From positions 1 through 20,227 of IMG/VR virus record IMGVR_UViG_3300035698_008348: a stretch of 20,227 nucleotides of DNA, one strand, 5' to 3'. Made by a program: the position numbers and the translations under genes. This stretch comes from a virus. Below are positions 1 through 20,227 of this stretch, in pieces (positions within the stretch are counted from its first letter, which is position 1; each line of letters starts with the position of its first letter). The notes under the pieces were generated by a model, which was given only the letters and a program-made list of their open reading frames with translations, searched no databases and had not been told where the DNA came from.

Positions 1-240
1 GCAGAACCTCATGGTGGTTATAATGATGATGATAAAAAAATAAATATAAAAATTGAATCATCTATTAAAGAAGAATATATTGATTGGATTAATACTATTA
101 GATTAAACATTAGCCCTAATACTGAAGATGAAAAAGAAATTAGATTATTTAAAAATACACCATTAAAAATTAGAAAAATAGAAGTTGGGGGTGAAGAAAT
201 TGATATAAATTTAATTATATCCAAAACATTCAAATCATGA
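1..240 (+). CDS. C-terminal part of an unknown protein (5' truncated by window edge)
   Basis: An open frame enters at base 1 and runs 79 codons to a TGA at 238-240. The visible residues are hydrophilic and charged, with a poly-Asp/Lys stretch near the edge (YNDDDKKINIKIE), a segment EEYIDWINTIRLNI and the ending NLIISKTFKS. No domain is recognisable. The stop overlaps the next start as ATGA (237-240), so the two genes are probably translationally coupled. It lies upstream of a gp5-like spike gene in the same direction, so a structural role is plausible, but that is context only. The small antisense frame over this stretch is a shadow. Confidence 0.7.
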   Translation, partial: AEPHGGYNDDDKKINIKIESSIKEEYIDWINTIRLNISPNTEDEKEIRLFKNTPLKIRKIEVGGEEIDINLIISKTFKS

Positions 241-665
241 AAAATAAATTATTATTTTTTAAACCCAAACCAACTATAAAAATATGGGAAGGACTTAAAA
301 TGCAATTCAATTATAGTTCCCAAGAATTATTATATCATTCATCAGTGTGTGGGTTTGTTGATGGAGTTAAACATGCTGTAGAACAAGGTGTTGATATAGA
401 TTATAATGATAGTGTTGCATTAAGATGGGCAGCTAATAACGGTCATATTAATGTAGTAAAATATTTAATTAGTGTTGGAGTTAATATGAATGCACATAAT
501 GGTGATGCATTAAGATGGGCAGCTAATAACGGTCATTATGAAATTGTTAAAATATTATTAAATAATGGTATTAATACTAATGTATGTGGCAAAGTTGCAT
601 TAAGTTGGGCAACAAACAGAGATCATGTTGATATAATTAAATTATTGAAAGGATTTATAAAATGA
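237..665 (+). CDS. Tagged ankyrin-repeat protein, 3 repeats
   Basis: A 142-residue protein. Residues 7-12 (FFKPKP) are a variant of the tag module shared by most accessory genes here. An ankyrin-cap-like segment follows at about 30-55 (ELLYHSSVCGFVDGV), then three ankyrin repeats of 30 residues each with the core ALRWAANNGH...VVKYL. Two repeats share an identical 31-base stretch 90 bases apart, a sign of recent unit duplication. Ankyrin solenoids bind proteins; no partner can be read from sequence. The start at 237 is preferred over the in-frame ATG at 300 because it keeps the tag and gives an ATGA overlap with the upstream gene. Its own TGA overlaps the next start at 662 in the same way. Confidence 0.85.
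   Translation: MKNKLLFFKPKPTIKIWEGLKMQFNYSSQELLYHSSVCGFVDGVKHAVEQGVDIDYNDSVALRWAANNGHINVVKYLISVGVNMNAHNGDALRWAANNGHYEIVKILLNNGINTNVCGKVALSWATNRDHVDIIKLLKGFIK
416..536 (+). repeat. 31-base exact repeat within an ankyrin gene
   Basis: Positions 416-446 and 506-536 are identical over 31 bases, 90 bases apart. They code for the same ankyrin core (ALRWAANNGH). The 90-base period equals one 30-residue repeat, so this marks a recent duplication or conversion of one unit. Confidence 0.9.
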
Positions 666-1183
666 ATAAATTATTTAAACCTAAATCTAATGAAGAATTA
701 AATGAGGGATTAAAATCACTAGATGATTCCCGACTATTTATTTTATCTGCTAGAATAGGTTATAAAAAGGGTGTAGAAATATCGCTAAAAAATAAAGATT
801 TAATGTGTCATAAAATATCAGCATTCAATCAAGCGATAATGACTAATCAAATTGAAATTGTAAAATTATTAATTGATAATGGAACTGCTATACATACTAG
901 TGCAAATTTCGCTATTCGTCATGCTTCAGGAAATGGATATGATGAAATTGTAAAATTATTAATTGAAGCAGGAGTTGATATACATGCAAATTTAGAAGAA
1001 TCATTAAAATTTGCATGTGTTAGAGGATATCACAAAGTAGTAAAGTTATTAGTTGAAGCAGGAGCTGATACAAGTAAATTAGGACCTTCTTATTTAGAAC
1101 ATGCTTTTAACAGTGGGTTTTATGAAATTAACAAAATATTAAAATATAATGAAAATACCAGATTTTTTAAACAAAACAATTAG
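662..1183 (+). CDS. Tagged ankyrin-repeat protein, about 4 repeats
   Basis: A 173-residue protein opening MNKLFKPKSNEELNEGL, one of the cleanest copies of the tag (residues 4-13). A cap segment follows (LFILSARIGYKKGVE), then about four 30-residue ankyrin repeats with cores such as NGYDEIVKLLIEAGVDIHAN. The start follows an AAAGGA sequence about ten bases upstream, one of the few Shine-Dalgarno-like leaders in the window, and overlaps the previous stop (ATGA). It ends with TAG, which shows TAG is not reassigned here. Its last 35 bases overlap the start of the gp5-like gene in another frame, unusually long for this region and consistent with a cassette abutting a structural gene. Protein binding is the likely activity; the target is unknown. 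Confidence 0.87.
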   Translation: MNKLFKPKSNEELNEGLKSLDDSRLFILSARIGYKKGVEISLKNKDLMCHKISAFNQAIMTNQIEIVKLLIDNGTAIHTSANFAIRHASGNGYDEIVKLLIEAGVDIHANLEESLKFACVRGYHKVVKLLVEAGADTSKLGPSYLEHAFNSGFYEINKILKYNENTRFFKQNN

Positions 1184-1919
1184 TGATAATGATTGGATAG
1201 GAATTGTTGTAAATAACAAAGATTCATTATTTACTGGTAGATGTCAAGTCCGTATTTTCAGATTAATGGATAATATTGAAAATACGGAATTGCCATGGGC
1301 TGTACCTATTAATTCTTCTATATTTGGTGGTGATGGTGCTGGTTCTTTATCAATTCCTAAAATAGGACAATTTGTAAGAATACAATTTAATAATGGAGAT
1401 ATATATGCCCCTGAATATACATCTATTCAAAATGTAGATTCAGCATTATCAGAAGAAATTAAAAATGATTATGAAGGTACTCATGTAATTGTGTACGATC
1501 CCGATGAAGAACTTAATGTAATTTATCAAAAAAATAGAGGGTTTGAAATTTATTATAGAGAATCATTTATACAAATTGCTCCTGATTCTATGATTACAAT
1601 TCAACATGCTAATCAAGAGTCATTAATACAATTAGAAGGAGACAAATGTAATATAGTTACAAAAAATGAAGTGAATATTTCGGCAGCTGCAAAAGTAGAT
1701 GTAACAGCTGATGAAGTTAGATTAGCTGGAAATCAAACAACAAAAGTTGGTCCTGGCCCATATAATCATGCTGTAATGGCAGAAATAATATTTCCTTTAT
1801 TAGAAACTTTAGCAACTTCTATAGATGCTAAAATGCCTGCAACCCCTGGAGTAAATGTTGGAATAGTTAAACAAGCTGAAGGGGCTGGAACATCAAATAA
1901 CGTATTAATATCAGAATAA
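1149..1919 (+). CDS. gp5-like baseplate hub/tail-spike protein (OB-fold, no lysozyme domain)
   Basis: A 256-residue protein. Residues about 14-95 resemble the OB-fold of T4 gp5 / P2 gpV spike proteins: WIGIV, then TGRCQVRIFRL, ELPWAVPI, GxSIPKIGQFVRIQF and a GDIYAPEY turn. Residues about 165-197 have alternating hydrophobic strands spaced about eight residues apart (VNIS, VDVT, VRLAG), as expected for the start of a gp5-type beta-helical needle. In T4 the trimer forms the membrane-piercing tip under the tail tube. At 256 residues this protein lacks the lysozyme insertion of T4 gp5 (575 residues). The C-terminus has an MPATPG segment. The start overlaps the upstream ankyrin gene by 35 bases, but no later ATG keeps the OB-fold. 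The stop overlaps the next start as TAATG. It has no KPK tag. Confidence 0.8.
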   Translation: MKIPDFLNKTISDNDWIGIVVNNKDSLFTGRCQVRIFRLMDNIENTELPWAVPINSSIFGGDGAGSLSIPKIGQFVRIQFNNGDIYAPEYTSIQNVDSALSEEIKNDYEGTHVIVYDPDEELNVIYQKNRGFEIYYRESFIQIAPDSMITIQHANQESLIQLEGDKCNIVTKNEVNISAAAKVDVTADEVRLAGNQTTKVGPGPYNHAVMAEIIFPLLETLATSIDAKMPATPGVNVGIVKQAEGAGTSNNVLISE

Positions 1920-2233
1920 TGAAAACATTATTTATTCCTAAACCCGAAAAAGAAATTAAAAAATATATAATTTTTTTAGAAAATATAAGGGGTGAAATTA
2001 ATCAAATAGATATAAATGTTATAACAGCTTATATGCCACAAGATTATACAGTAGGAACTGCTTTAATTATTGACACAAAGGAAGATCGAGTTCCATATAC
2101 TTTATATATAGATAATGATTATAAATTAACATTATATGGTGATGGATATAAATTACTTAGTAAAGTAACTAAATATCCTATTATAAGATTTTTTAAATTA
2201 AAAAAAACGTTTTTTATAAATGGGAGGGATTAA
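1919..2233 (+). CDS. Small tagged protein of unknown function
   Basis: A 104-residue protein opening MKTLFIPKPEKEIKKYI, a diverged copy of the tag (residues 4-13; Ile replaces the first Lys, Pro replaces Ser). The body looks like a small alpha/beta fold with alternating strands (GTALIIDT, VPYTLYIDNDYKLTLYGDGYKLLS) and a basic C-terminus (FFKLKKTFFINGRD). It is not an ankyrin protein and I do not recognise the family. It starts on the TAATG of the gp5-like gene, so it is probably translated by coupling to it. It is useful as evidence that the tag also heads non-ankyrin bodies. Confidence 0.75.
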   Translation: MKTLFIPKPEKEIKKYIIFLENIRGEINQIDINVITAYMPQDYTVGTALIIDTKEDRVPYTLYIDNDYKLTLYGDGYKLLSKVTKYPIIRFFKLKKTFFINGRD

Positions 2234-2254
2234 TAAAATATTTTAAAAGAATTT

Positions 2255-19848: not shown

Positions 19849-19863
19849 ATTTAATTTTATATT

Positions 19864-19871
19864 TATTTATA
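19864..19871 (-). promoter_or_regulatory. T4-late-type promoter box TATAAATA, leftward
   Basis: A perfect TATAAATA on the minus strand ends 15 bases before the gp25 start codon. With initiation about a turn downstream, as in T4 late genes, the leader would be only a few bases long. It would drive the whole leftward baseplate block. Confidence 0.5.
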
Positions 19872-19908
19872 TATTCTAATTTCTAAATAGTATAATTTTT
19901 TTTAAATA

Positions 19909-19916
19909 TATAAATA
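19909..19916 (+). promoter_or_regulatory. T4-late-type promoter box TATAAATA, rightward
   Basis: A perfect TATAAATA on the plus strand ends 12 bases before the ATG at 19929. It is the divergent partner of the box at 19864-19871 in the same 80-base spacer, so the ankyrin gene to the right may be expressed at the same time as the baseplate genes. Confidence 0.5.
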
Positions 19917-19928
19917 AAAATAGTTTAA

Positions 19929-20227
19929 ATGAAAGCTAAATTTGTAAATGAAAATTTTAATAATATATTAAAACCAAAATCTGATGATGATATTTGGAAA
20001 GAACTTAAAAATTTAAATCCAGATGATTTATTAATTAAATCAATTAAAATAGGTTTTGCAAGTGGAGTTAAATTAGCTTTAGAAAAAGGTGCTAATGTGC
20101 ATGTTAATAATAATGCTGCTTTAAGAGGGGCTTCTGAAAATGGTTATACTGAAGTTGTAAAGGTTTTACTTGATGCTAGGGCTGATGTGCATACTAATAA
20201 TGATTATGCTTTAAGATGGGCTTCTGA
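19929..20227 (+). CDS. Tagged ankyrin-repeat protein, 3' truncated by window edge
   Basis: An open frame of 99 codons runs off the right edge. It begins MKAKFVNENFNN, followed by the tag at residues 13-22 (ILKPKSDDDI), the cap (LLIKSIKIGFASGVKLAL) and ankyrin units AALRGASENGYTEVVKVLL and YALRWASE. The leader MKAKFVNE matches that of the ankyrin gene at 15843-16505, while third codon positions differ. The gene is set off by a divergent late-type promoter spacer and begins a rightward block. Number of repeats and real length are unknown. The repeat spacing is again 30 residues. Confidence 0.85.
   Translation, partial: MKAKFVNENFNNILKPKSDDDIWKELKNLNPDDLLIKSIKIGFASGVKLALEKGANVHVNNNAALRGASENGYTEVVKVLLDARADVHTNNDYALRWAS

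What the first reader, a model, noticed from the sequence alone, without database searches (positions are those of the whole stretch)
237..20227. A shared N-terminal KPK peptide tag heads unrelated accessory proteins
About 18 copies of [IL]-[FL]-K-P-K-[ST]-x-x-[ED]-[IL] occur in 15 of about 25 genes, nearly always within 15 residues of Met. Bodies differ: ankyrin solenoids, a duplicated alpha/beta-like domain, a GNAT-linked region, acidic small proteins, a 35-residue peptide. Core baseplate proteins (gp25, gp6, gpI/gp7-like, gp5-like) lack it. The closest known parallel is the T4 capsid-targeting sequence on internal proteins, an N-terminal peptide that sorts unrelated proteins into the prohead. 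I infer a sorting or docking signal for loading cargo into the virion, or for binding one common partner.
Basis: partly seen in the sequence, partly recalled or inferred. Interest (0 to 1): 0.9.

Follow-up and report, generated by a model that had tools for sequence, protein, structure and literature searches.

The report
Clade-specific N-terminal tag on megaphage proteins
A family of giant bacterial viruses related to the Lak megaphages puts the same short peptide tag at the front of dozens of otherwise unrelated proteins, usually right behind what looks like a cutting site for the virus's own head-assembly protease, and its sister families do the same with different tags, which suggests a large sorting system for accessory proteins that may be carried in the virus particle.

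Summary
The window carries 18 tags of the form [IL][FL]KPK[ST]xx[ED][IL] in 16 genes; 13 strict regex hits, one of them a chance hit in a tail gene, against 0.01 expected after shuffling. The window is a fragment of a Lak-like megaphage. In its clade I found 122 distinct copies on bodies that are mostly unrelated. The [ILV]xE fits T4 gp21-type prohead-protease sites. It precedes 40 of 46 internal copies against a 7.6% background, so many proteins look like cleavable strings of tagged modules. Sister clades keep the [ILV]xE but carry other tags: FERGxDPKxxMxIG, or FxEESDPIxDMGIG; distant Lak-A1 has a few genes with ESLFDDD. The three well-sampled tags never share a contig, and tag type follows the gp6 tree. 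The best explanation is a clade-specific address for virion or prohead cargo, exposed by gp21-type cleavage. Packaging itself is inferred; no proteomics exist. The plain CTS reading is only partly right, because KPK lies on the retained side of the site.

The parts
255..284 (+). tag FFKPKPTIKI, leaderless, gene 237-665 (ankyrin)
671..700 (+). tag LFKPKSNEEL, leaderless (MNK-), gene 662-1183 (ankyrin)
1928..1957 (+). degenerate tag LFIPKPEKEI, gene 1919-2233, body unknown
   Evidence: no usable Pfam hit
2552..2581 (+). internal tag LFQPKQEKDI preceded by PLTE|S, after the GNAT domain of gene 2255-2986
   Evidence: (GNAT E=1e-8)
6398..6427 (+). tag ILKPKSNKEL, leaderless (MSASS-), gene 6383-7027 (weak ankyrin)
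7081..7110 (+). tag ILKPKSNTDI, leaderless, gene 7063-7638 (ankyrin)
7656..7685 (+). tag ILKPKTNKEI, leaderless, gene 7635-8096 (ankyrin)
8101..8130 (+). tag IFKPKSKYKI, leaderless, gene 8080-8520 (ankyrin)
8550..8579 (+). doubtful, degenerate tag LFKSKDINIS, gene 8541-8978
   Evidence: weakest match
13989..14018 (-). tag ILKPKSTKEI, leaderless, gene 13083-14033 (long ankyrin)
14839..14868 (-). tag LFNPKTIKEI directly after Met, gene 14566-14871 (weak ankyrin)
15343..15372 (-). tag IFKPKLSEEI in the 35-residue ORF 15271-15378
   Evidence: ORF too short to be sure it is a gene
15781..15810 (-). leader with site (HISE|N) and tag FLKPKSEKEI, gene 15430-15846 (acidic C-terminus)
16446..16475 (-). 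leader MKAKFVNE|SN and tag IFKSKTNDEI, gene 15843-16505 (ankyrin)
19427..19456 (-). leader MDAKFIE|ND and tag 1 IFKPKSIDDI of the triple-tag gene 18515-19483
19103..19132 (-). internal site VYE|S and tag 2 LFKSKSIDEI of gene 18515-19483
18773..18802 (-). internal site IME|NS and tag 3 IFKPKTNIEL of gene 18515-19483
19965..19994 (+). leader MKAKFVNE|NFNN and tag ILKPKSDDDI, gene 19929-20227 (cut by window end; 174-aa full copy in L003 3080-3604 -)
12199..12228 (-). chance match LYKPKSFPKL inside the 1233-aa tail protein, not a tag
   Evidence: residue 257, no E site
16591..18507 (-). baseplate wedge gp6, untagged; used for phylogeny
1149..1919 (+). gp5-like baseplate hub protein, untagged
19486..19848 (-). 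gp25-like protein, untagged, heads the operon with interleaved tagged genes
   Evidence: synteny; PF04965 hits in 13 of 13 related contigs

Best explanation
The tag is a clade-specific N-terminal address carried by a large set of late-region accessory proteins of Lak-like megaphages. Shown: the tag is shared by proteins whose bodies are mostly unrelated, is maintained as a peptide, descends from common copies, sits at the N-terminus or at the head of internal modules, is preceded by a conserved [ILV]xE, and is replaced by other tags in sister clades. Supported but not proven: the [ILV]xE is a cleavage site of the phage's S77 (gp21-type) prohead protease, so that leader-bearing proteins and multi-tag polyproteins are cut into separate products that each start with the tag, as leaderless proteins already do. 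Inferred: these proteins are loaded into the prohead through a clade-specific partner (core or scaffold), trimmed there, and ejected with the DNA to act early in infection. I put the cleavage step at about 0.65 and head packaging at about 0.5.
For: 1) 122 distinct copies, 46 of them internal; conservation is confined to about -14 to +11 around KPK and then stops. 2) E sits exactly 7 residues before the K in 42 of 59 N-terminal copies with room for it and in 31 of 46 internal copies; 40 of 46 internal copies have an [ILVMF]xE[SAGNE] site within 14 residues, background 7.6%. 3) With other tags the same E is kept: 27 of 29 in the FERG clade and 65 of 66 in the SDP clade. 4) T4 gp21 cuts after L/I-x-E and its CTS propeptides address unrelated proteins to the head (PMC9026906). 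These phages carry an S77 protease, and its own open frame has conserved VNE|G/S and LNE|A/S sites just after the protease domain. 5) The MCPs have a conserved ALNE|A(A/E)MGG, where T4 gp23 is processed (T4 position from memory). 6) Gene fission equals internal module: the LSISxQVEFL body is a separate tagged gene in G001 and G007 and an internal tagged module in G003 and G010. 7) Multi-tag protein: the two internal site-tag junctions fall at or in low-confidence linkers between folded domains. 8) Tagged genes are interleaved co-directionally with gp25, gp6 and other baseplate genes.
Against: No virion proteomics. The KPK tag is on the C-terminal side of the putative cut, unlike a T4 CTS, so it cannot be the removed propeptide. 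About 10 window copies have no leader and no E site. In the SDP clade the residue after E is K (56 of 66), which is not the A/S seen at the MCP and protease sites. Copies share descent, so part of the E conservation is inherited; between orthologues the tag changes about as fast as the body. The protease and MCP were not found in the window or in G001; the nearest is G029, placed in the KPK clade only by four degenerate tags seen by eye. Some tagged genes lie far from virion genes, including a DinG-like helicase. The helicase-methylase with a leader has the opposite domain order to P1 DarB.
Confidence: 0.5

Rival explanations
1. The leader and tag form one uncleaved docking epitope for a common partner outside the head (for example a host-takeover complex, the tail, or a replication compartment). 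Each clade has its own partner and so its own tag.
For: The tag follows the site and would remain on the protein; many copies are leaderless; tagged bodies include ankyrin repeats, typical protein binders, and a DinG-like helicase; P1' is K in the SDP clade.
Against: The [ILV]xE is kept while the rest changes between clades; the two internal site-tag junctions examined fall at low-confidence linkers; module fusion and fission.
Confidence: 0.27
2. The tag is a relic of gene-family expansion: gene heads were copied and recombined onto new bodies (short shared DNA favouring recombination), without a present sorting role.
For: Serine codons nearly all TCN, so common descent; between orthologues the tag is only slightly more conserved than the body; heavy domain shuffling.
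Against: Synonymous codons vary; the element stays recognisable across mostly unrelated bodies while the bodies do not; three mutually exclusive clade tags with the same architecture; the [ILV]xE is preserved in 65 of 66 SDP copies.
Confidence: 0.12
3. The tag is only the N-terminal cap of the ankyrin solenoid, other cases being chance.
For: In the AlphaFold2 model of a leader-bearing ankyrin protein the SxxEIxxxL part is a helix packed at the start of the solenoid, with tag pLDDT about 71.
Against: Most tagged bodies are not ankyrin; 0.01 chance hits expected in the window; ankyrin-related bodies in sister clades carry FERG or SDP tags; residues upstream of KPK are disordered yet conserved.
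Confidence: 0.04
4. It is an import signal for a phage nucleus-like replication compartment.
For: A DinG-like helicase carries the tag without a leader; the phages are giant.
Against: RecA-like, RNR and other DNA-metabolism genes seen in G001 lack tags; no chimallin search was made; tagged genes are interleaved with virion genes.
Confidence: 0.07

Closest known systems
T4 capsid-targeting sequences (IPI, IPII, IPIII, Alt) with gp21 processing
   Same: Short N-terminal peptide on unrelated accessory proteins; L/I-x-E site for an S77 prohead protease; bodies diverge fast (PMC9026906).
   Different: Here a second conserved tag follows the site and would be retained; 30-45 genes per 260-300 kb instead of a handful; tags recur inside polyproteins; each clade has its own tag; packaging not shown.
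[quoted passage not shown]
   Same: The N-terminal 30 residues of a large accessory protein suffice to address a reporter to the head (PMC9024508); G001 has a 1425-aa helicase-methylase starting with the leader MIVCE|S.
   Different: The Dar proteins have no common N-terminal consensus (PMC9024508); the domain order of the G001 protein (helicase first, methylase last) is opposite to DarB.
SPN3US and phiKZ-type giant phage ejection proteins
   Same: Many internal head proteins, some cut after an x-x-E motif (A-X-E in SPN3US) by a prohead protease (PMC5694885).
   Different: Propeptides there are mostly over 100 residues and are not a shared short tag on dozens of genes.
Plasmodium PEXEL export motif (works like, not related)
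   Same: N-terminal motif shared by many unrelated effectors; cleavage exposes a new N-terminus needed for sorting (PMC10900883).
   Different: Eukaryotic ER protease; no homology.
Polyvalent proteins of phages (PMC5512222)
   Same: Multi-domain proteins with variable modules thought to be delivered early in infection.
   Different: Those are defined by enzyme and LPD domains, not by a repeated short tag with protease-like sites.

Membership tests
T4-type capsid targeting sequence | Short N-terminal peptide shared by unrelated proteins | tested here: met
   76 N-terminal copies; bodies fall in 29 clusters plus 90 singletons over all clades
T4-type capsid targeting sequence | Peptide ends at an L/I-x-E processing site | tested here: inconclusive
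   [ILV]xE in 42 of 59 N-terminal copies with room for it; absent in about 10 leaderless window copies; V is common where T4 has L/I
T4-type capsid targeting sequence | The conserved sorting peptide lies upstream of the site and is removed | tested here: not met
   KPK lies 7 residues downstream of the E; only the leader M[KR]AKxVxE fits this feature
T4-type capsid targeting sequence | Phage encodes a gp21-type (S77) prohead protease | tested here: met
   S77 hits in related IMG/VR records and in Lak-A1, PHROG 207 E=1e-38 for G029; not found in the window fragment or in G001, where those genes may simply be missing
T4-type capsid targeting sequence | Carriers are found inside the head and are cleaved | not testable with these tools
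   needs virion mass spectrometry
T4-type capsid targeting sequence | Sequence similarity to the T4 IP leader | not tested
   T4 leader not compared by a tool
Ankyrin N-terminal cap | Occurs only on ankyrin bodies | tested here: not met
P1 DarB-type packaged methylase-helicase | Methylase fused upstream of an SF2 helicase | tested here: not met
   G001 212950-217227: ResIII at 317-519, Eco57I at 1094-1205; DarB order from PMC5512222

The most novel reading that the evidence does not exclude
Lak-like megaphages use a two-part, clade-specific protein address (protease-cut leader plus a retained tag) on dozens of accessory effectors, many encoded as self-tagging polyproteins that the prohead protease cuts into equal tagged units, so that one virion delivers a large protein arsenal; the tag code has been replaced as a whole between sister clades.
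Probability: 0.35. Interest if true: 0.9.

Novelty: new variant of a known kind. Interest (0 to 1): 0.75.

Why it matters
Nearly all accessory proteins of huge phages lack known function. A tag that marks a set of them as belonging to one pathway would let anyone list candidate injected effectors straight from sequence, including those of uncultured phages, and would give short address peptides for loading foreign proteins into very large heads. The replacement of the tag between sister clades, with the protease-like site kept, offers a natural experiment on how a sorting code changes.

Tried and rejected
Chance and composition: rejected. DNA-level element (promoter or insertion repeat): codon usage at the tag is near genome-wide with synonymous variation, so rejected as the main cause, though common descent shows in the serine codons. 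Ankyrin cap: rejected as a full explanation. The 12199-12228 match in the tail protein: chance. The KPK match in L031: stray (MYNPKTPEEI). Two genome-contig hits of the tag pattern were not followed up; the second is internal with no site. PHROGs for possible core proteins near c035: no hits. The tag-versus-body substitution test was uninformative. Window ankyrin protein as related-loci query: nothing.
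Full report
Observation. The 20,227-base window encodes about 25 genes. I find 18 tags in 16 of them. Fifteen are within the first 13 residues; one is internal in the GNAT gene and two are internal in the 322-aa protein. Strict matching gives 13 hits against 0.01 in shuffled proteins; the hit in the 1233-aa tail protein is chance.

Where it comes from. gp6 (16591-18507) is 41-42% identical to Prevotella Lak megaphages over 98% of its length and 59-100% identical to 40 IMG/VR loci. 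The window is thus a fragment of an uncultured Lak-like megaphage. L003 is 100% identical over gp6 and supplies the full 174-aa version of the gene cut at the window's right end.

The tag in the clade. In the closest relatives (gp6 78% or more) the tag is common; in those at 74% or less it is absent. In a 259,840-base relative (G001) it occurs in 32 genes by the narrow pattern and 39 by a slightly wider one. A degenerate DNA pattern for the core hits only 14 of 2.9 million viral contigs. Aligning 122 distinct copies shows the whole element: M[KR]AKx[VI]xE[SA][IL]x[DN][IV][LF]KPK[ST]x[ED][ED][IV]xx[SAE][LIF]; information falls to background by about position +14.

The Glu. E lies exactly 7 residues before the K in 42 of 59 N-terminal copies that have room for it and in 31 of 46 internal copies. 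Allowing loose spacing, 40 of 46 internal copies have an [ILVMF]xE[SAGNE] site just upstream, background 7.6%. In G001, 51 of 309 proteins have [ILV]xE[SAGN] at the N-terminus, against 11 in random internal stretches. In the window all three internal tags have it (PLTE|S, FVYE|S, NIME|N), while about ten leaderless tags begin close to where a cut product would begin.

Sister clades. G011 (gp6 73%) has no KPK tag but 31 copies of [NDH]F[EQT]RGxDPKxxMxIG in the same place, also internal (up to four per protein), with [VIL]xE kept: E in 27 of 29 over G011 and G025. G026 (405 kb, 300 kb read) has 66 copies of FxEESDPIxDMGIG in 45 genes, with E in 65 of 66. Lak-A1 has five genes with L[LIMV]E[SN]LFDD[DE]-type heads in 200 kb. 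Contigs holding the three main tags do not overlap (14, 43 and 16 contigs). On the gp6 tree KPK and FERG each form one clade and SDP falls within a third. Some relatives have no such tag (L025, L026).

Bodies. Cutting proteins at the tags of all clades gives 225 bodies: 29 BLAST clusters and 90 singletons. Ankyrin is the largest cluster (41). Clusters mix N-terminal and internal copies, and several mix clades with different tags (KPK with FERG; FERG with SDP; ankyrin in KPK and SDP). The LSISxQVEFL body is a free tagged gene in G001 and G007 but an internal tagged module in G003 and G010. This equivalence is easiest to understand if the internal site is cut.

Protease. The lineage has an S77 prohead protease fused to a long, scaffold-like region. 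Conserved VNE|G/S and LNE|A/S lie just after the protease domain in G011, G025 and G029, and the MCPs share HALNE|A(A/E)MGG. T4 gp21 cuts after L/I-x-E, and its CTS peptides bring unrelated proteins into the head (PMC9026906); SPN3US uses A-X-E (PMC5694885). G029 is from the same sample as L003 and shows four degenerate KPK heads by eye.

Structure. The AlphaFold2 model of the full ankyrin protein has a disordered leader (pLDDT about 51), a tag at about 71, and a helix starting at SxxEI that caps the solenoid; the fold is an ordinary ankyrin. In the 560-aa triple-tag protein the two internal site-tag junctions fall at or in segments under pLDDT 50 (30-116, 411-423), between folded domains; this model is of modest quality (mean 67).

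Mechanism. Shown: a shared, clade-specific, N-terminal or module-heading peptide maintained at the protein level. Supported: the upstream [ILV]xE is a prohead-protease site. Inferred: carriers are loaded in the head and ejected. Leaderless copies and the lysine after E in the SDP clade are the main difficulties.

Limits. Genes are longest-ORF calls on metagenomic fragments. Copies share descent, so counts are not independent. Orthologous tags change about as fast as bodies. No experiment or proteome was available.

Noticed in passing
L054 12950-17227 (-) (G001 212950-217227): 1425-aa protein with ResIII helicase and Eco57I-type methylase domains that starts with the leader MIVCES; possible virion-borne anti-restriction enzyme.
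   Followed up: partly
L053 14397-16172 (+): DinG/YoaA-like helicase with a leaderless KPK tag at its N-terminus.
   Followed up: partly
L166 17557-18033 (-), L099 203-646 (-): A body cluster in G011 and G026 with LRR-like pattern (LTTLRGCPK, NNLTSLKYAP), under two different clade tags; Pfam gave no hit on the one member scanned.
   Followed up: partly
L096 768-3302 (+), L159 13403-15733 (+): Prohead protease in one open frame with a long scaffold-like region (776-844 aa), a fusion not seen in T4 (T4 comparison from memory).
   Followed up: partly
window 14861-14953 (-): 30-aa ORF overlapping the next gene start; unclear if real.
   Followed up: no
G001 and G026 (e.g. L056, L171): Many GIY-YIG-like and HNH-like homing endonuclease ORFs (KFNYVYITTN, YENHHIIPKC) scattered among genes, named from sequence pattern only.
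   Followed up: no
L143 3995 (+), L144 5422 (+): KPK-like pattern in two bacterial MAG contigs (Bacteroidales, Methylophilaceae); the first starts MLKPKSEEEIEVLR at the N-terminus of a 259-aa ORF.
   Followed up: no
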